Part shown: one piece after another, positions 1 to 6,770 of the stretch
How positions within the stretch are numbered: position 1 is the first letter of the stretch
Layout: every line of letters starts with the position of its first letter
From: an uncultured Clostridiaceae bacterium
Lineage (GTDB): Bacteria > Bacillota > Clostridia > Lachnospirales > Lachnospiraceae
Length of the DNA: 6,770 nucleotides
Assembly: GCA_949841235.1 (NCBI GenBank)
Contig: CATKZA010000099.1
Coordinates: 1-6,770 of the forward strand
Direction: 5' to 3'
Notes under the pieces: model-generated
What the model was told of the DNA's origin: nothing
Databases searched by the model: none
The model's input: the letters and a program-made list of their open reading frames with translations, nothing else
Program-made: the position numbers and the translations under genes

Positions 1-1440
1 CAAGGTAAAGCCCACCTCCTTGAGCCGGAGTGCCTTACTGCTAATCTGCTGGTCGTCAGCCGTCTCCGTAATTTCCAATTCCAACAATTCCTTGCGAATG
101 CCAGATTCCTCTACCAGCTGGGACAATATCTGGATGCACTCGTCATTGTCCCGAAGGTGAATGCGGGATACATTGACGGAGATCGGCGCAGGGGACACCC
201 CTTCCTCCTGGCATCTCCTGATGAAATGGCAAGCCTCGCTCCATATATAATAGTCCACTTTCTTAACAAAGCCATTTTCCTCAATAATCGGAATAAATTG
301 ATTGGGAAAAATCATGCCCCTCTCCGGATGCTGCCAGCGCACCAATGCCTCTGCCCCGATAATCACGTTCTGGGCAATACTGTATTTCGGCTGCAAATAC
401 ATTTGAAACTGCCTCTCGGCAATGGCCAGCTGCATATTCTCCTCAATAAACTTCCTATTGTACAGAGAATCTTTGAATTGCTCTTGGTAAAACAAGATAT
501 TCGTGAGGACATTATTCTTCGCCCTCTTCCTCGCCATGGCCGCCCTGTCTTCCATCTGGCGAAGTTCCATATTGCGATCCTCCACTGTATAAATGCCATA
601 AGACAACTGCAGCTTCACATTCTTATAATAACTAATCCTCTCATCCAATTCCTGAATAAACTCAACCAATTCCTGAGGATCCCCATACTCTGTCACCACC
701 ATGAATACATCACTGCGGAGATTGACAAAAAACTGGTTTTCGTTGCAGTTTTCCCGCAGCTGCCTGATAATAAAATACAATACCTCATCGCCAAACTTTT
801 CACCATACAAGTCATTGACGATTTTGAATTTGCGAATATCGAACTGTATAAATCCTATATCCTTCTTGGATCTAAATAGGAGATTGTTCACATTTCTGTT
901 AAAGCGGTTGCGCTTGCTGACCCGCTTGAGCATGCTCTGCATGTCCTCATTTTGCGGAATATCCTCCAAGGCAATGTTGCTCTCCGTCACTTCTTTGAGA
1001 TACTCCTCCAGCATCTCCTCCAGCAAATGGATACTCACGCTCATGGCAGAAGGGCAGGTCTTTAAGATCAGCCCCTGCTTTCTAATCTCTGCCATCTCTA
1101 CCGGAACCGAAATGTCCTTCCCCAGAATGTCACGACAATTCACCTTGCCGCCCATTTCCTCCCGAAAACGCTGAATAAACTCATCCGTCTTTTTATTGCC
1201 ATACAGTTCCAGTTCCCTATCCTGGGAATCATAGAACCCAAGTCCCATGCCCAGAACCATCAAAGCCGCCGTAATGCAGCCGCAGGTACCGCCCTGGCGC
1301 ATCCCTCCTCCAAAGCAGGTGCTGACCTTGAATGCCGTCTTTAAATCCAGCCCGAAATCCCCCGCAAAAGCCCCGAATAGAGCCTGAGAGCAATGATACT
1401 GCTGTAGCAATAACTGCTCCGCTTTCTCCAAATGCGTCAT
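1..1440 (-). CDS. C_GCAxxG_C_C cysteine domain fused to degenerate GGDEF and EAL domains (5' part, runs off left edge)
   Basis: Reading leftward from ATG at 1438-1440, 480 codons stay open to the window edge. Residues about 1-145 match the C_GCAxxG_C_C family: HCSQALF (C17), CFGGGMRQGGTCGC (C42, C53, C55), NCRDILG (C102) and KTCPSAM (C129). A helical linker follows. Residues about 190-310 form a GGDEF-like domain that keeps FDIRKFKIVND and GEKFGDEVL, but RSDVF (242-246) stands at the GGDEF signature, so cyclase activity is unlikely. The EAL domain starts near 325, with QPKYS, EAL (364-366), SVNVS (N423) and LEITET (E456, E459). The window ends just before the expected DDFG motif. EAL domains hydrolyse cyclic di-GMP; the residues visible here are compatible with activity. 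The start has GGGGG about 7 bases upstream, and an in-frame TAG lies at about 1519-1521. No membrane segment is visible, so it is probably cytosolic. The cysteine domain may sense redox state or bind metal; that role is inference. Confidence 0.9.
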   Translation of the reverse strand, partial: MTHLEKAEQLLLQQYHCSQALFGAFAGDFGLDLKTAFKVSTCFGGGMRQGGTCGCITAALMVLGMGLGFYDSQDRELELYGNKKTDEFIQRFREEMGGKVNCRDILGKDISVPVEMAEIRKQGLILKTCPSAMSVSIHLLEEMLEEYLKEVTESNIALEDIPQNEDMQSMLKRVSKRNRFNRNVNNLLFRSKKDIGFIQFDIRKFKIVNDLYGEKFGDEVLYFIIRQLRENCNENQFFVNLRSDVFMVVTEYGDPQELVEFIQELDERISYYKNVKLQLSYGIYTVEDRNMELRQMEDRAAMARKRAKNNVLTNILFYQEQFKDSLYNRKFIEENMQLAIAERQFQMYLQPKYSIAQNVIIGAEALVRWQHPERGMIFPNQFIPIIEENGFVKKVDYYIWSEACHFIRRCQEEGVSPAPISVNVSRIHLRDNDECIQILSQLVEESGIRKELLELEITETADDQQISSKALRLKEVGFTL

Positions 1441-1568
1441 AAATAACCCCCATATATTCCATATCCCGCCACAAAATGCAGAATGTATGCATTTCAACGC
1501 TGAAAGCGCTGCTTGTTACTATGAGCGGCAAAGCCATGAATAATAACCCTTCGCCATATATGCCACCT

Positions 1569-1574
1569 ATTATA
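1569..1574 (-). promoter_or_regulatory. Possible -10 box for the leftward cysteine/GGDEF/EAL gene
   Basis: Read on the minus strand, this is a perfect TATAAT about 130 bases upstream of the ATG at 1440. The hexamer at 17-bp spacing (1592-1597) reads AAAATG, a poor -35. There is no extended TG motif. The call therefore rests on the -10 hexamer, the AT-rich setting and the position in a divergent intergenic region. Transcription would start near 1562 and leave an untranslated leader of about 120 bases. Confidence 0.35.
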
Positions 1575-1676
1575 ATCTAACACATTACTGACATTTTTTA
1601 AACCATTTGCCCCAAGGAAGGTCGCCCATTTTCGGCGATAACCTATCCATTTTCACCCGTTTGCAAAAAAATACCA

Positions 1677-1706
1677 TTGACAAATGCCCCATTGTTAAGA
1701 TAGAAT
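1677..1706 (+). promoter_or_regulatory. Sigma-A-type promoter for the T-box/ileS transcript
   Basis: A perfect -35 TTGACA (1677-1682) is followed by an 18-bp spacer and a -10 TAGAAT (1701-1706), one mismatch from consensus. Initiation near 1713 would start the transcript a few bases before the T-box leader, the expected arrangement for tRNA-controlled attenuation. Confidence 0.75.
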
Positions 1707-1885
1707 GAGAAAAACGTTGAAAGAGACAGTAGTATTGATGCAGAATTCACAGAGAGTCAGGGCAGCTGAGAACTGATAATGGACGCAAAATACGAAGATC
1801 CCTCTGGAGTTGCAGACCGAAAGCATGGCAAGTAGGCTCTGCCGGTACATCCCCCGTTACCGGGATAGCATATGATGGTATGTTC

Positions 1886-1931
1886 ATACAGGTGGTATAA
1901 AAATGAGTCGCGATAGCCCTCATCCTAGTAT
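1886..1931 (+). promoter_or_regulatory. Non-canonical T-box antiterminator
   Basis: ATACAGG (1886-1892) can pair with CCT and GTAT (1924-1931, with A1927 bulged). Inside it, ATGAG (1903-1907) pairs with CTCAT (1919-1923) around an 11-base loop. The asymmetric bulge is TGGTATAAAA (1893-1902), ten bases by this fold, against the family's usual seven-base TGGNACC. The fold uses most of the 5' arm of the terminator, so the two structures exclude each other as the T-box mechanism requires. Pairing was worked out by eye. Confidence 0.65.
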
Positions 1932-1948
1932 AGGATGAGGGCTTATTT
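1915..1948 (+). terminator. T-box intrinsic terminator upstream of ileS
   Basis: AGCCCTCATCCTA (1915-1927) pairs perfectly with TAGGATGAGGGCT (1931-1943) around a GTA triloop, followed by a T-rich run ending at 1948. It overlaps the 3' arm of the antiterminator and is the default OFF structure when tRNA-Ile is charged. Confidence 0.9.
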
Positions 1949-1962
1949 ACTGTATAAGTCCA

Positions 1963-2021
1963 GTACCAAGCGGCAGCACGGCCGTCAAGCTTGCTTGCAA
2001 GGCCGGGCTGACATTTGGTAC
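1963..2021 (+). repeat. Long imperfect hairpin between the T-box terminator and the ileS ribosome binding site
   Basis: GTACCAA (1963-1969) pairs with TTGGTAC (2015-2021). Inside, AGCACGGCC (1975-1983) pairs with GGCCGGGCT (2001-2009) with one A/G mismatch, and CAAG (1986-1989) pairs with CTTG (1994-1997) at the tip. It is markedly more GC-rich than its surroundings and lies after the T-box terminator, so the T-box does not explain it. There is no T-run after it and the Shine-Dalgarno is outside it. It could be a dispersed palindromic repeat or an extra leader structure. Confidence 0.6.
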
Positions 2022-2037
2022 GACAACAGCATATATT

Positions 2038-2044
2038 AAGGAGG
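2038..2044 (+). promoter_or_regulatory. Strong ribosome binding site of ileS
   Basis: AAGGAGG sits seven bases before the ATG at 2052-2054, an ideal Shine-Dalgarno that fixes the ileS start. It indicates that the gene is set up for efficient translation despite the internal TGA. Confidence 0.9.
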
Positions 2045-2051
2045 ATTTACA

Positions 2052-5000
2052 ATGAAGCATCAAGAACTATCCGCCAAGCCAGCTTTGAATCTCATACAGG
2101 AGGAGATTCTGGATTTCTGGAAAGAAGAACAGATTTTTGAAAGATCCGTGGAAGAGCGGACAGGGGAAGAGGTGGTTTTCTATGATGGGCCTCCATTTCC
2201 TACAGGAAAGCCCCATCACGGAACGGTTCTGGTATCCTTTATCAAGGACATGATCGCCAGATACCAGACCATGAAGGGGTACCGGGTTCCCCGGGTGTGG
2301 GGATGGGACTGCCATGGCCTGCCCATCGAAAACCAGGCTGAGACATTGCTCGGCATCAGTGACAAGAACGAAATCGAAAAAAGCCTGGGCATTGACAAAT
2401 TTAATGATAAATGCTTCGAGATTGTGTCAAGCAACAACGAGGCATGGAAAGAGTATGTGGAGCAGATGGCTCGCTGGGTGGACTACGACGGGGCATACAA
2501 AACCATGCATGCGGATTTCATGGAAAGCGTCATGTGGGCCTTCAAGCAATGCTATGACAAGGGATATATCTATCGGGACTACCGGGTCACGCCCTATTGC
2601 ATGCACTGCGAGACATCCCTGTCCATTTCCGACACCAGGGAATCCGATTCCACAAGGCTGAGACAGGATCGGTGGATTATCGCCAGGTTCCAGACAGAAG
2701 AAACCATAGAGGGAAAGCCAGTCTACTTTCTCGCTTGGACTACCACGCCCTGGACGCTTCCCTCCAACCTATGCCTTGCGGTGGGTGAGAACCTGGATTA
2801 CGCTTACGTGGATGTGGGAGATTCCATCTATGTGGCATGCAAGAATACCTTGGCAAACTTTGAAAAGGTATTCGGAAAGCATCCCGCCATCGTGAGGGAA
2901 TGCAAGGGAAGCGACTTGCTGGGGAAATCCTATACGCCATTATTTGACTATTTCGCAGACAAAAAGGCCAATGGGGCATTCCGGGTAGTTTCCGCAGAAT
3001 ATGTGGGTTCGGAGGAAGGCGTGGGCATCGTCCACACGGCTCCCGCCTTTGGAGAAGATGACTACTGGACATGCAAGAACAACCACATTCCTCTTGTCAA
3101 TCCCGTAGATGAAAAAGGACATTTCACAGAAGAGATCACAGATTTTTATGATCCGAGCCAGCAGAAGAATGTAATTGAAATGAATCCCGCAATCATTCGG
3201 TTCCTCTATGAACAGAAAAAGGCCGTAGCAGATGGCACCATTGAACACAACTATCCCCACTGCTGGCGTTGCAAGAGGCCGTTAATTTATAAGGCAATGG
3301 ATGCCTGGTATTTTGACATCGGAAAACTAAAAGACCGCTTAGTGAGGTGCAACGAGGAGATTCATTGGGTGCCGGAAACCGTAAAGCACGGACGCTTCGG
3401 CAACTGACTGGCAGGAGCCAGAGACTGGAATATATCCAGAAACCGATACTGGAGCACCCCCATTCCCATCTGGGAATGCCAAGAATGCGGGGAACGAGTG
3501 GTACTTGGCAGCATCGAGGAAATTTTCCAGGCAAGCGGCATCCGCCTGACCAATCTTCACAGACAGTACATGGATTCCGTCACATTTCCGTGCAAATGCT
3601 GCGGAAATACCATGCATCGTGTGCCGGAGGTGCTGGACTGCTGGTTTGAGAGCGGCTCCGTGCCCTTTGCCCAGAAGCATTATCCCTTTGAAAATAAGAA
3701 ATGGTTTGAATCCCATTTCCCCAGCGATTTCATCGTGGAGTATACCGGGCAGATCCGCTGCTGGTTTTATTATCTGCATGTGTTATCCGTGGCACTGTTT
3801 GATAAGCCCGCATTTCAGAACTGCATCGTCCATGGCACGATTTTGGCGAAGGATGGGAAAAAACTTTCCAAGTCCTCCAAGAACTATACAGACCCCATGC
3901 ATCTGATGAAGCAGTACGGGACGGACGCTTTCCGCCTCTATCTGTACCAGACCAATGCCATGCTGATTGGAGACTTGCTATTTGACGAGGCTGGCATCCA
4001 GGATGCGTACCAGCAAATCATCCTGCCCTACTGGAACGCATGTAATTTCTATATTTCCTATGCAAATATAGACGGCTTCCTTCCCGGGCAATGCATCGAA
4101 CCTTCCTCTGACAACCAGCTGGATCAATGGATGCTGGCCAAATTGCATGAAACCCGACGGCTGATCACTGAAAATATGGATGCCTATCAGGTCAATAAAT
4201 ATGTGGAATACTTGGCATCCCTGATTGATGGCTTGACAAACTGGTATATCCGGCGTTCCAGGAGACGCTTTTGGAGCAATGGCATGTCCGGGGATAAGGA
4301 AAATGCCTATGAAACCCTATACTATGTCCTGGTATGCACCACCAAGCTTTTTGCACCGGTAGCGCCCATTATATCGGAAAAGATGTACAAAGTGCTGACA
4401 GGCGGCTTTTCTGTGCATCTGGAAAAATGGCCTGAAATTCCCAAAGCATTTGCAAACGAGGACTTGATTGCCCATGTTGCCCTAGTGCGGGAAATCATTT
4501 ATCTGGCTCGCTCCATCCGCAATAGAAACCGGATAAAGAACCGACAGCCATTAAGCTGCTTAAAAGTTGCATTGCCAGATCCATCCAAGAATGTAGTCAT
4601 CACAGCATTCAAGGATACCATTGCGGAAGAATTGAATGTAAAGGATGTGGTGCTTCTGGATGAGGCAGAAAATATTGCAGAGGTGAAATATGCCCCCAAT
4701 TTCCAAGAAATCCGTGACAGATACCCTCAGCAGATCCCTGAGATTATCCGAGCGGTTAAGAGCGGCAAATTTCAACTGGGGAAAGAAACAGTCGTTTTAC
4801 AGATGGAGCAAGGAGAAGCATCTTTCGATCGGGAGATCATTCTAGTGACATATCAGGCCAGGGAGGGCCAGCATGTGGCTAGCGGCCAAGGCATCGTAGT
4901 ATCTCTGGATCTCACCCTCACCGATGAACTGAAGGCAGAAGGCTTTGCCAGGGACATTGTGAGACATATCCAAGATGCCAGAAAGAAGATCGGCTGCGAT

Positions 5001-5171
5001 ATTGCGGACCACATCTCCCTTGCCTTTGAGGGAGATGTGCCGGAGCAATGGCTGGAATATATCTGCAATGAGACCTTAGGGCAGATCAGCGATGTCCCCT
5101 CCCCGGAGGAAATTGTCGAAATAGAAGGGTATGAACATCACAAAATAAAGATTTTCATGAGCAAAGCCTAA
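2052..5171 (+). pseudogene. ileS: Isoleucyl-tRNA synthetase, interrupted by one in-frame TGA (possibly still expressed)
   Basis: Class I synthetase that would charge tRNA-Ile with isoleucine in the cytosol. One reading frame runs through 1040 codons ending in TAA, normal for IleRS, with a single TGA at codon 452. Residues 1-451 hold GPPFPTG with HHGT (55-58) at the HIGH position, GWDCHGLPIE (84-93), the editing domain with TTTPWTLPSN (230-239) and GIVHTAPAFGEDDY (325-338), and CWRC (404-407). After the TGA, in the same frame, come LAGARDWNISRNRYW, paired cysteines (C476/C479 and C514/C517), EYTGQIRCWFYYLH, the KMSKS-equivalent KLSKS (604-608), the anticodon-binding helical domain (DQWMLAKL, NWYIRRSRRRFW) and the C-terminal region (DELKAEGFARDIV). 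No frameshift or other stop is present. Untreated, the TGA gives a 451-residue fragment (2052-3407); the first in-frame ATG after it is at 3570. The T-box and strong ribosome binding site are intact. Domain style resembles the eukaryote-like IleRS type, often a paralog; that is inference. Confidence 0.9.
3405..3407 (+). other. In-frame TGA at a conserved Trp codon of ileS
   Basis: The codons read GGC AAC TGA CTG GCA, where the family expects Gly-Asn-Trp-Leu (the GRFGNWL stretch before the R-x-W-x-I-S-R-N-R-Y-W block). One G-to-A change from TGG explains it. The next base is C, a context known to be leaky in bacteria, and tRNA-Trp is the usual near-cognate reader of TGA. A short hairpin, CTGGC (3408-3412) with GCCAG (3417-3421), follows immediately. 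Other Trp codons in the gene are TGG, so this is not a reassigned code. It may be a real mutation, a leaky stop or a base-calling error. Confidence 0.9.
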
Positions 5172-5172
5172 A

Positions 5173-5193
5173 AAACGAATAGATTTTTCGTTT
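5173..5193 (+). terminator. Small AT-rich hairpin just after the ileS stop
   Basis: AAACGAA (5173-5179) pairs with TTCGTTT (5187-5193) around a seven-base loop, starting two bases after the ileS TAA. It is AT-rich and lacks a clean T-run, so it is at best a weak terminator or a 3' end stabiliser ahead of the stronger hairpin at 5242. Confidence 0.3.
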
Positions 5194-5241
5194 ATAACAA
5201 TAGATTGCAGGCATCACCAGCAAACATATTGTCATGAATAA

Positions 5242-5283
5242 CATAAAATATTCCGACTTTCTACGAAGCCGGAATATTTTATG
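5242..5283. terminator. Bidirectional terminator between convergent genes
   Basis: CATAAAATATTCCG (5242-5255) is the exact reverse complement of the 14 bases at 5270-5283. Three further pairs (CTT with AAG) lie beyond one mismatch, and the loop is about six bases. Both outer arms end in AT-rich runs that give a T-rich tract on either strand. It lies between ileS and the leftward PaaK-like gene, whose stop codon is only 11 bases away, so it can end transcription from both sides. Confidence 0.88.
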
Positions 5284-5293
5284 ACTAATTGGG

Positions 5294-6556
5294 CTATTTC
5301 TTCTCATCCCCTTTAAACGACCAGAACGTCCTCATCTTTTTCACTGCCCTCTCTGAAGGCATCTCATCCCGAAAACGAAAAGTATAGATACCTTTTTTCA
5401 AGAAATCATGAGGGAGCCTTTCTTGAAAGATTCGCTTAAACTCCTCCTGTACTTCCTGTTGTTCCAGCAGTTTCCTATCCTTTGTCAATATGGTCACAAT
5501 ATAACTAAAATATCCTGTCTGTTCCACCTGGTACTGGAGCATCTCCACCTCCATGCTATTCATTACACACTGAAAGGCATATGTAAATTCATAGGGCGGA
5601 ATGTCTATATCCTGATCCACTCGAATCATGTCATTCCTCTTCGCCTTTGTCAGCCTCAGTATTCTGCCCGGATGACCGCAGGAACATTTTTTCGTAGAAA
5701 TCTTTCCCCTGTCTCCCAGACTATAACGCACAAAAGGCATAAGGGTATTGTGGAGCGAAGTCAATACGATATCGCCCTCCTCTCCGTCTGGGAGCACCTT
5801 CTGCCCATCCATAATCTCTGCAAAGACATTGTCCTCCAGCAGATGCATATGTCCCTCCGGACATTCATAAGCAATGGCATTCATCTCATAACTTCCATAT
5901 ATATTCACAGTTTTGCAGTGAAAGGCCTTCTCAATCTGCTTCCTCTGCTTGTCTGTCACCCATTCCCCGATGAGTTCCACGCATTTCAGCGACGGAATCT
6001 CCTTTGCCTTGCCCTTGCTGATATAATCGGCAAATAGCAACGCCACACTGGGTGGCATCAAAATCCACTTGGGTTCATAATTGCGCATTTCCTGATAAAT
6101 CCTCTCTACCCTGTCCTCAGTGAGTCCCAGCACGGAAAATCCCAAATCCTTTCTGTTGCTCCGAGGATCTCTGGCTGTCCCTTCGTCGCAAAAATCTGGA
6201 TACATATGAAAAAAACAACTCTTGTCCTGAACTTTCAACCCATAAAACCTACTACGGCAATCCCATAGCGGGGACACAGAGGAAATCATGTCCTTCACGC
6301 TCCATGGTATCCCCATAAACATTCCATTGGAGCCAGAAGACATGTCGTAAATCCTCTGATTGCCTTCGGGAGAAGACTGGGAAGAGGAAGGAATGACGCA
6401 CTCATCTGCGCAGACCATCTGCCTCCTATCTACAACCGGCACCTTCGTCCAATCCTCCATCAAATCCTCAGCGGAGGCCTTCTTCTTCTGTAATAGTGAT
6501 TGGTAAAATGGCGACTGCGTATAAGCATATCGTAACATTTCCTTCTCTCTTTCCAT
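5294..6556 (-). CDS. PaaK/CapK-like adenylate-forming enzyme (phenylacetate-CoA ligase family)
   Basis: A complete 420-residue protein, close to the usual 420-450 of the PaaK/CapK branch of the ANL adenylating superfamily. These enzymes activate a carboxylic acid with ATP, usually for transfer to CoA or another acceptor. Visible motifs are YDMSSGSNGMFMGIP (70-84; ATP phosphate-binding A3 loop), VELIGEWVTDKQRKQIEKAF (193-212), YGSYE (220-224; A5, normally YGxxE), GDIVLTSLHNTLMPFVRYSLGD (261-282; A7/A8 region with the usual RY..GD) and CSCGHPGRILRLTKAKRND (291-309). The small C-terminal domain ends in SERAVKKMRTFWSF. The GR of the usual GR.DD hinge reads KR.D here, a mild divergence. There is no signal peptide or membrane segment. 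GGAG lies about 8 bases before the ATG, which supports the start. The substrate cannot be read from the sequence. An upstream gene ends 67 bases away on the same strand, so the two probably form an operon with its promoter outside the window. Confidence 0.88.
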   Translation of the reverse strand: MEREKEMLRYAYTQSPFYQSLLQKKKASAEDLMEDWTKVPVVDRRQMVCADECVIPSSSQSSPEGNQRIYDMSSGSNGMFMGIPWSVKDMISSVSPLWDCRSRFYGLKVQDKSCFFHMYPDFCDEGTARDPRSNRKDLGFSVLGLTEDRVERIYQEMRNYEPKWILMPPSVALLFADYISKGKAKEIPSLKCVELIGEWVTDKQRKQIEKAFHCKTVNIYGSYEMNAIAYECPEGHMHLLEDNVFAEIMDGQKVLPDGEEGDIVLTSLHNTLMPFVRYSLGDRGKISTKKCSCGHPGRILRLTKAKRNDMIRVDQDIDIPPYEFTYAFQCVMNSMEVEMLQYQVEQTGYFSYIVTILTKDRKLLEQQEVQEEFKRIFQERLPHDFLKKGIYTFRFRDEMPSERAVKKMRTFWSFKGDEKK

Positions 6557-6623
6557 ACAAATTCTCCTTCCCCTGCGAAAGTTCTCCTACCCTCGCATTT
6601 CAATCAATACCTTCAACTTGTTC
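6557..6623 (-). promoter_or_regulatory. Short intergenic gap with the ribosome binding site of the PaaK-like gene
   Basis: On the minus strand the gap ends GGGGAAGGAGAATTTGT immediately before the ATG at 6554-6556, giving a good Shine-Dalgarno (AAGGAG) about eight bases from the start. I see no terminator hairpin or clear promoter in the gap, which supports co-transcription with the upstream gene. Confidence 0.6.
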
Positions 6624-6770
6624 CTACTGCTCTTCCTCTGCGCTGCGAGAATCCTCCAACTCTGCCCTCAGGCAATCCGGAAGTTCTACTTCCCCCCACT
6701 GAAAACCGCTTGTTCTGGATAAGGGAATCCTCTGTCCCATGTTGCTCAGCACCTGATTCGCCTTCTCTCT
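6624..6770 (-). CDS. C-terminal tail of an unrecognised protein (runs off right edge)
   Basis: Read leftward from 6770, 48 codons are open to a TAG at 6624-6626. The tail includes REKANQVLSNMGQ, IPLSRTSGFQWGEVELPDC and an acidic end ELEDSRSAEEEQ. I do not recognise the family; the charged, Glu-rich end looks like a disordered C-terminus. It has the same strand as the PaaK-like gene and sits 67 bases upstream, suggesting one transcript. The reading frame rests on its being open from the edge and on a protein-like composition, so it is uncertain that this is a real gene end. Confidence 0.5.
   Translation of the reverse strand, partial: REKANQVLSNMGQRIPLSRTSGFQWGEVELPDCLRAELEDSRSAEEEQ

What the first reader, a model, noticed from the sequence alone, without database searches (positions are those of the whole stretch)
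3405..3421. Single in-frame TGA at a conserved Trp codon of a T-box-controlled ileS
All 1039 other codons of this 3.1-kb gene are open, and its promoter, T-box and ribosome site look intact. The only lesion is TGG to TGA at codon 452. TGA followed by C is a leaky context, and read-through by tRNA-Trp would restore exactly the conserved residue. A five-pair hairpin begins at the next base. Possible readings are a recent knock-out of a paralog, low-level full-length production by read-through, or a base-calling error.
Basis: partly seen in the sequence, partly recalled or inferred. Interest (0 to 1): 0.72.

Follow-up and report, generated by a model that had tools for sequence, protein, structure and literature searches.

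The report
Recently broken spare isoleucyl-tRNA synthetase gene
In one draft bacterial genome, a spare copy of the gene for an essential protein-making enzyme is interrupted by a single stop codon; this is most likely a very recent loss that the intact second copy would cover, or possibly a sequencing error, and it is ordinary.

Summary
An in-frame TGA sits at 3405-3407, codon 452 of an otherwise open ileS frame (2052-5171) behind a T-box-like leader. The column is Trp in the 120 listed homologues and TGG in 80 of 80 related loci. The gene is an accessory paralogue: the same draft genome has another, uninterrupted ileS (43% identical), and 6 of 27 same-genus relatives carry an orthologue, none with a stop. 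Both pieces still show purifying selection, so the stop is very young, an artefact, or tolerated. The hairpin after the stop occurs unchanged in 3 of 80 loci with a sense codon, so it is not specific to the stop. No tRNA-Sec reached the cut-off in 28 genus genomes. UGA ends 68 of 223 sampled long frames. One fact favours leakiness: the 24 tRNA-Trp genes recovered in the genus all have a 4-bp anticodon stem, a form reported to raise UGA read-through. No second conspecific copy was found, so base error cannot be excluded. Verdict: most likely an ordinary recent nonsense knock-out of a spare gene.

The parts
1677..1706 (+). Predicted promoter: TTGACA (1677-1682) and TAGAAT (1701-1706)
   Evidence: read directly; in the alignment TTGACA is kept in 4 of 6 orthologous leaders and TAGAAT in 5 of 6
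1708..1930 (+). T-box leader (predicted); AUC, taken as the isoleucine specifier, at 1798-1800
   Evidence: cmscan RF00230 E 1e-17, 79.6 bits, gathering score 93 not reached; AUC in 7 of 7 leaders
1915..1943 (+). Terminator-like hairpin of the leader, 13-bp arms
2038..2044 (+). Ribosome-binding site AAGGAGG
2052..3404 (+). ileS, 5' piece: 451 codons; first half of the catalytic domain with the HIGH-motif place (here HHGT); editing-domain region inferred from its place
3405..3407 (+). In-frame TGA at codon 452, at a column that is Trp in the 120 proteins and 80 loci examined
3408..3421 (+). Five-pair hairpin CTGGC-AGGA-GCCAG; coding, also in relatives that have TGG at codon 452
3408..5171 (+). 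ileS, 3' piece: 587 codons plus TAA; KLSKS half of the catalytic domain, anticodon-binding domain, DUF5915

Best explanation
The window holds a second, accessory ileS behind a predicted T-box leader, interrupted by one in-frame TGA; it has likely been knocked out very recently, so that translation would stop after 451 residues while the uninterrupted ileS elsewhere in the genome would supply the enzyme. Shown: the stop, the open frame on either side, the second ileS, the patchy presence of orthologues, the Trp column, and purifying selection on both pieces. Inferred: that the 451-residue product is inactive, since it lacks the KLSKS half and the anticodon-binding domain, that the other ileS is the main working copy, and that the change is real in the cells.
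For: Another ileS lies on contig C89 of the same genome, 43% identical, no stop inside the match, with HIGH and KMSKS motifs. Orthologues of the window copy occur in 6 of 27 same-genus genomes, none with a stop in the match, and all six also have the 41-44% paralogue. Two of the six share both flanking genes, so the locus is not a misjoin. Private changes, synonymous/non-synonymous: window 130/34, G020 134/27, G006 100/37; Fisher p = 0.91, and by a rough bootstrap at most about 4% of the branch evolved without constraint. In a sample of about 384 frames the window has the longest stop-interrupted frame without an ATG within 60 bases of the stop.
Against: The allele is known from one 66%-complete, 404-contig draft genome. 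No second conspecific copy, broken or whole, was listed; the window's own piece was not listed either, so that collection may lack this species. The lack of further damage fits a base error or tolerated read-through just as well.
Confidence: 0.57

Rival explanations
1. The TGA is a base-calling or assembly error, or a minority strain variant, in a fragmented draft genome; the gene is intact in the cells.
For: One genome only, 404 contigs (largest seen 28 kb), 65.66% complete, 3.05% contaminated. No other lesion in the gene and no relaxed selection. No conspecific copy found.
Against: In about 384 sampled frames no other clear nonsense break was established; 7 other same-frame pairs lack an ATG within 60 bases, of which 3 were checked: one is a gene join, two stay unproven. 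Read data were not available.
Confidence: 0.27
2. The gene works at a reduced level because the genus's tRNA-Trp, which has a shortened 4-bp anticodon stem, decodes the UGA as Trp part of the time.
For: The 24 tRNA-Trp(CCA) genes recovered from 23 of 28 genus genomes all have an unpaired A27-C43. Of ten recovered by similarity elsewhere in the order, eight have five pairs counting G-U, two do not. PMC13092985 (passages read) reports about 2.5-fold more UGA read-through in E. coli with an overexpressed 4-bp-stem tRNA-Trp. Purifying selection persists. UGA is followed by C, a context the finding calls leaky (not tested here).
Against: UGA ends 68 of 223 long frames in this genome's sample, 13 of them as UGAC. 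Back-up stops after UGA are in excess here but equally in a control genome with a full stem, and not in another genome of the genus. 0 of 11 stops in a small homology comparison lay opposite Trp. The tRNA-Trp gene of this genome itself was not recovered. The A-C pair is not among the tested variants in the passages read.
Confidence: 0.13
3. The two pieces are translated separately and assemble into a split synthetase, with re-initiation at GTG 3498.
For: An open frame of 557 codons starts at GTG 3498, with GGGGA a few bases upstream.
Against: Re-initiation there would skip 30 codons after the stop, including the SRNRYW stretch identical in all 13 full-length sequences compared. 70 of 80 related loci are single open frames of at least 1000 codons; 8 are cut by a contig end, 1 runs off the contig, 1 is frame-broken elsewhere.
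Confidence: 0.02
4. The UGA encodes selenocysteine.
For: A hairpin follows the UGA, and a neighbouring gene belongs to a (seleno)protein-related family.
Against: No match over the tRNA-Sec cut-off in any of 28 genus genomes, against 5 of 14 control genomes (27 of 28 had only sub-cut-off matches, and in many genomes only 103 candidates were scored). The column is Trp in the 120 homologues.
Confidence: 0.01

Closest known systems
Nonsense alleles of dispensable paralogues (young pseudogenes)
   Same: Single stop, apparently intact promoter and frame, another copy elsewhere
   Different: No further decay yet; single-genome evidence
Bacterial genes with in-frame stops under purifying selection (PMC7918605; abstract and passages read)
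   Same: An in-frame stop with low dN/dS around it, which those authors take as a sign that many such genes are not dead
   Different: Here selection before the stop arose explains the pattern just as well, because the stop is seen on one terminal branch only
4-bp anticodon-stem tRNA-Trp(CCA) and UGA read-through (PMC13092985; passages read)
   Same: The genus's tRNA-Trp has the top stem pair unpaired
   Different: The pair is A-C; the passages read name C-A, C-U and G-A as the commonest. By my hand count base 24 is A, paired with U11, which would put it outside that paper's 'Blastocrithidia-like' subset. UGA remains a common stop here
IleRS2 with an altered HIGH motif, G/AXHH (PMC10485003; passages read)
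   Same: Type-2-like IleRS with a changed class I signature motif
   Different: Here the fourth residue is changed (HHGT); drug response untested

Membership tests
Isoleucyl-tRNA synthetase, type 2 | Full match to the ileS model (TIGR00392, cut-off 621.4 bits) | tested here: inconclusive
   The two pieces score 464.1 and 355.6 bits and together cover nearly all of the model; the pieces were not joined
Isoleucyl-tRNA synthetase, type 2 | Closer to eukaryote-like than to type 1 IleRS | tested here: met
   5' piece: cytoplasmic enzyme 9w01, 8c8v and 1ile at 339-362 bits, against 199.5 bits for 1ffy; the type labels of 8c8v, 1ile and 1ffy are recalled
Isoleucyl-tRNA synthetase, type 2 | HXGH or G/AXHH signature motif (as described in PMC10485003) | tested here: not met
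   HHGT in the window and in 6 of 6 orthologues, in 120 listed proteins and 80 of 80 loci; one 90%-identical fragment has HHGS (P0128). In 8 of 12 genomes tested this type is the only IleRS match, so it is likely functional
MupA/MupB mupirocin-resistance IleRS | NCBIfam cut-off of 1900 bits | tested here: not met
   339 bits at most for either piece alone; the pieces were not joined
T-box leader | Rfam RF00230 gathering score of 93 | tested here: not met
   79.6 bits, E 1e-17, full-length match; six orthologues 64.5-80.1 bits
T-box leader | Specifier codon matching the gene's amino acid, and a terminator | tested here: met
   AUC in 7 of 7 leaders at the presumed specifier place; 13-bp terminator-like hairpin
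Selenoprotein | tRNA-Sec in the genome | tested here: not met
   0 of 28 genus genomes over the cut-off, candidates capped at 103 in many; none in the incomplete own genome with all 133 candidates scored
UGA=Trp recoded genome | UGA not used as a stop | tested here: not met
   68 of 223 long frames end in UGA in a 40-contig sample
Young pseudogene | Disabling change real in the organism and product inactive | not testable with these tools
   No reads, no conspecific copy

The most novel reading that the evidence does not exclude
In this genus a tRNA-Trp with a 4-bp anticodon stem reads UGA as Trp often enough that TGG-to-TGA changes act as dimmers rather than knock-outs, and this spare IleRS is a natural example: a gene kept under selection but turned down by a single codon.
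Probability: 0.08. Interest if true: 0.55.

Novelty: new member of a known kind. Interest (0 to 1): 0.17.

Why it matters
As it stands it is one more recent nonsense allele of a dispensable paralogue, or a draft-genome error. It matters slightly more because it points to a clean test of whether 4-bp-stem tRNA-Trp genes, found in every genus member where the gene was recovered, make UGA leaky in nature.

Tried and rejected
Codon-usage scan for broken genes: uninformative; the window's own stop was not among the 40 rows printed, so a frame-adjacency scan replaced it. Of the 24 same-frame pairs listed there, 16 have an ATG within 60 bases of the stop and look like gene joins. Besides the window, 7 do not; three of these were checked against Pfam: one is the rplB-rpsS join, one has a glycosyltransferase on one side only, one (L127:19037) has no Pfam match on either side and stays undecided. 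The other four, each with one side of only 61-68 codons, were not checked.

Selenocysteine: rejected. Hairpin as a read-through element: rejected; its one variable pair is Watson-Crick in 33 of 80 loci against 24.3 expected, which I do not take as convincing. Plasmid origin: no match for window 1500-6700 in near mode. A degenerate tRNA-Trp pattern gave 7 hits in 4 of 28 genomes that did not look like tRNA-Trp to me and were not pursued; a whole-gene query worked.

Back-up stops within 10 codons as a sign of leaky UGA: in this genome 41 of 83 in frame, 25 and 27 in the shifted frames, p = 0.008; but also in control genome G043, whose tRNA-Trp has five pairs with G-U at the top, 42 of 89 against 31 and 22, p = 0.007; G006 27 of 63 against 20 and 18, p = 0.10; G014 32 of 56 against 25 and 38, p = 1. 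After TAA G006 also shows an excess (45 of 89 against 30 and 33, p = 0.024). So not tied to the tRNA. Homology comparison with G006: 26 stop-to-stop segments with at least 65% match, some apparently antisense frames or gene ends; 11 stops, none opposite Trp, one opposite a gap.

Neighbours of the orthologues: 10 of the frames listed were scanned; they share no theme that I could see.

Full report
What is there. An in-frame TGA at 3405-3407 interrupts a 1040-codon frame (2052-5171, final TAA included) that is otherwise open. The 5' piece (451 residues) and the 3' piece (587 residues) match consecutive parts of the ileS model and of Pfam PF00133, followed by the anticodon-binding domain and DUF5915. 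I kept the two pieces apart throughout, because the family lies near known antibiotic-resistance synthetases.

Leader. Rfam at its gathering score finds nothing. With an E-value threshold the T-box model matches 1708-1930 end to end at 79.6 bits, E 1e-17. All six orthologues have such a match upstream, 64.5 to 80.1 bits. An alignment of the seven leaders shows AUC in all, with a variable base before it, at the place that I take for the specifier. A terminator-like hairpin with 13-bp arms lies at 1915-1943. I therefore accept the T-box reading although the curated score is not reached. Of six other-ileS loci fetched from relatives (L041-L046), five were tested at the gathering score and none matches; three of these were tested with the E-value threshold and two match (L043 and L045, not L042).

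It is a spare gene. The genome (G000; 2.1 Mb, 404 contigs, 65.66% complete, 3.05% contaminated) has another ileS on contig C89, 43% identical, with an open frame of 1148 codons and no stop inside the match, and with HIGH and KMSKS motifs. Among 60 relatives searched with the 5' piece, 6 of 27 in the same genus have an orthologue of the window copy at 78-90% identity, none with a stop in the match; the other listed matches are 45% identical or less (the table is cut at its end, but the best E-value of every genome is shown, and several genomes are incomplete). All six also have the 41-44% paralogue. In G020 and G006 the flanking genes are the same, 93% and 87-88% identical, so the window is assembled in the right order. 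Relatives of the family occur in many Clostridia draft genomes. In 8 of 12 genomes tested (three R. albus, one R. flavefaciens, four others, some small drafts) it is the only match at E 1e-30; in 4 of 12 a 41-43% paralogue is also present.

The codon. Between the pieces every listed homologue has exactly one residue, Trp, in 120 of 120 (the best 120 of 7996 scored). Of the 80 genes, 70 are open for at least 1000 codons, 8 are cut by a contig end, 1 runs off the contig without a stop (L080), and 1 (L077) is interrupted elsewhere. Broken copies are thus rare in this set.

Age of the lesion. Compared with G020 and G006, private synonymous and non-synonymous changes are 130 and 34 in the window, 134 and 27 in G020, 100 and 37 in G006. 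The difference is not significant (Fisher p = 0.91), and a rough bootstrap puts the part of the branch without constraint at about 4% or less. Pairwise dN/dS is 0.04-0.10 against the two nearest relatives; against the others dS is saturated. At columns invariant in the other six, the window has 11 private changes of 639, G020 3 of 631, G006 8 of 636, G007 6 of 634, G026 20 of 648, G008 21 of 649 and G025 85 of 713: slightly more than its closest relatives, but not decay. The stop is therefore very young, not real, or tolerated.

Is it real? Two searches of 5.8 billion proteins, one with an intact relative and one with the 451-residue piece, list no conspecific copy among the best 120 each: the closest listed full-length protein is 86.6% identical to the window pieces, and the closest shorter ones are 88-90%. 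The window's own piece is not listed either, so absence there is weak evidence. No reads are available. In 42 contigs or parts of contigs including the window (459 kb, about 384 frames of 100 codons or more) 24 same-frame neighbouring pairs occur; 16 have an ATG within 60 bases of the stop. Of the 8 that do not, the window is the clearest break; of the other seven, three were checked against Pfam (one gene join, two unproven) and four, with one very short side, were not.

Could it be read through? Against: the hairpin after the stop is found unchanged in 3 of 80 relatives with TGG, and all five pairs can form in 11 of 80; no tRNA-Sec over the cut-off in 28 genus genomes (candidates capped in many); UGA ends 68 of 223 long frames in a 40-contig sample, 13 of them UGAC; 0 of 11 stops in a small comparison with G006 lie opposite Trp. 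For: the 24 tRNA-Trp(CCA) genes recovered in 23 of the 28 genus genomes all have A27-C43 unpaired at the top of the anticodon stem. Of ten tRNA-Trp genes recovered by similarity elsewhere in the order, eight have five pairs counting G-U, and two do not. PMC13092985 (passages read) reports that a 4-bp-stem tRNA-Trp raised UGA read-through about 2.5-fold in E. coli when overexpressed, that 8.9% of bacterial tRNA-Trp genes have such a stem, and that 2414 of them carry A9C and/or G24A. By my hand count the genus's tRNA-Trp has A at 9 and A at 24 (paired with U11), so it would fall outside that paper's narrow subset. The tRNA-Trp of this genome itself was not recovered. Back-up stops after UGA are in excess in this genome, but equally in a control genome whose tRNA-Trp has a full stem, and not in G014 of the same genus, so they give no support for a special tRNA effect. 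PMC7918605 (abstract and passages read) argues that many bacterial in-frame stops lie in genes under purifying selection and may be read through, but also that many such events are short-lived.

Conclusion. The best-supported reading is a very recent nonsense knock-out of a dispensable second IleRS gene, with a draft-genome error next. Read-through by the genus's unusual tRNA-Trp is a minor but testable possibility. The finding itself is ordinary. The side observations, an IleRS family with HHGT in place of HXGH and the 4-bp-stem tRNA-Trp across the genus, are of more interest than the stop codon.

Noticed in passing
window 2052-3404; 120 proteins; loci L047-L126: This IleRS family has HHGT at the class I HIGH signature (fourth His replaced by Thr) in the 120 listed proteins and 80 of 80 loci. 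Among the 120 proteins listed, 116 could be read: 40 HHGT, 69 with a fourth His (HYGH, HHGH, HFGH), and 7 others (HYGT, HYGS, HHGS, HLGT, HYGN). In 8 of 12 genomes tested it is the only IleRS match. PMC10485003 describes HXGH and G/AXHH; 'HXGT' and 'HHGT' do not occur in its main text (figures and supplement not seen). Paper searches listed no paper whose title or abstract start describes it (14 of 14, 20 of 559 and 10 of 39 papers listed).
   Followed up: partly
loci L232-L254 and L256 (genus tRNA-Trp genes): The 24 tRNA-Trp(CCA) genes recovered in 23 of 28 genus genomes all have a 4-bp anticodon stem (A27-C43 unpaired), while UGA remains a common stop codon in the three genus genomes sampled.
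   Followed up: partly
window 1-1440, - strand: A protein fusing a C-GCAxxG-C-C putative redox domain to GGDEF and EAL domains; it runs off the contig. The same gene flanks the spare ileS in G020 and G006.
   Followed up: no
window 5294-6556, - strand: An AMP-dependent ligase-like protein, best but below cut-off to the DVU_1553 family (110.8 of 300 bits). The protein on the other flank scores below cut-off to the DVU_1555 C-GCAxxG-C-C family (40.6 of 103 bits), which may hint at a shared cluster around the spare ileS.
   Followed up: no
window 1955-2049: An extra hairpin between the T-box terminator and the start codon, with a weak match to Clostridiales-1 RNA (24.4 bits, gathering 48); the seven leaders do not align well there.
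   Followed up: no
L077: Another copy of the HHGT ileS, in an uncultured Ruminococcus draft genome, is interrupted after about 657 codons, with the match continuing in another frame.
   Followed up: no
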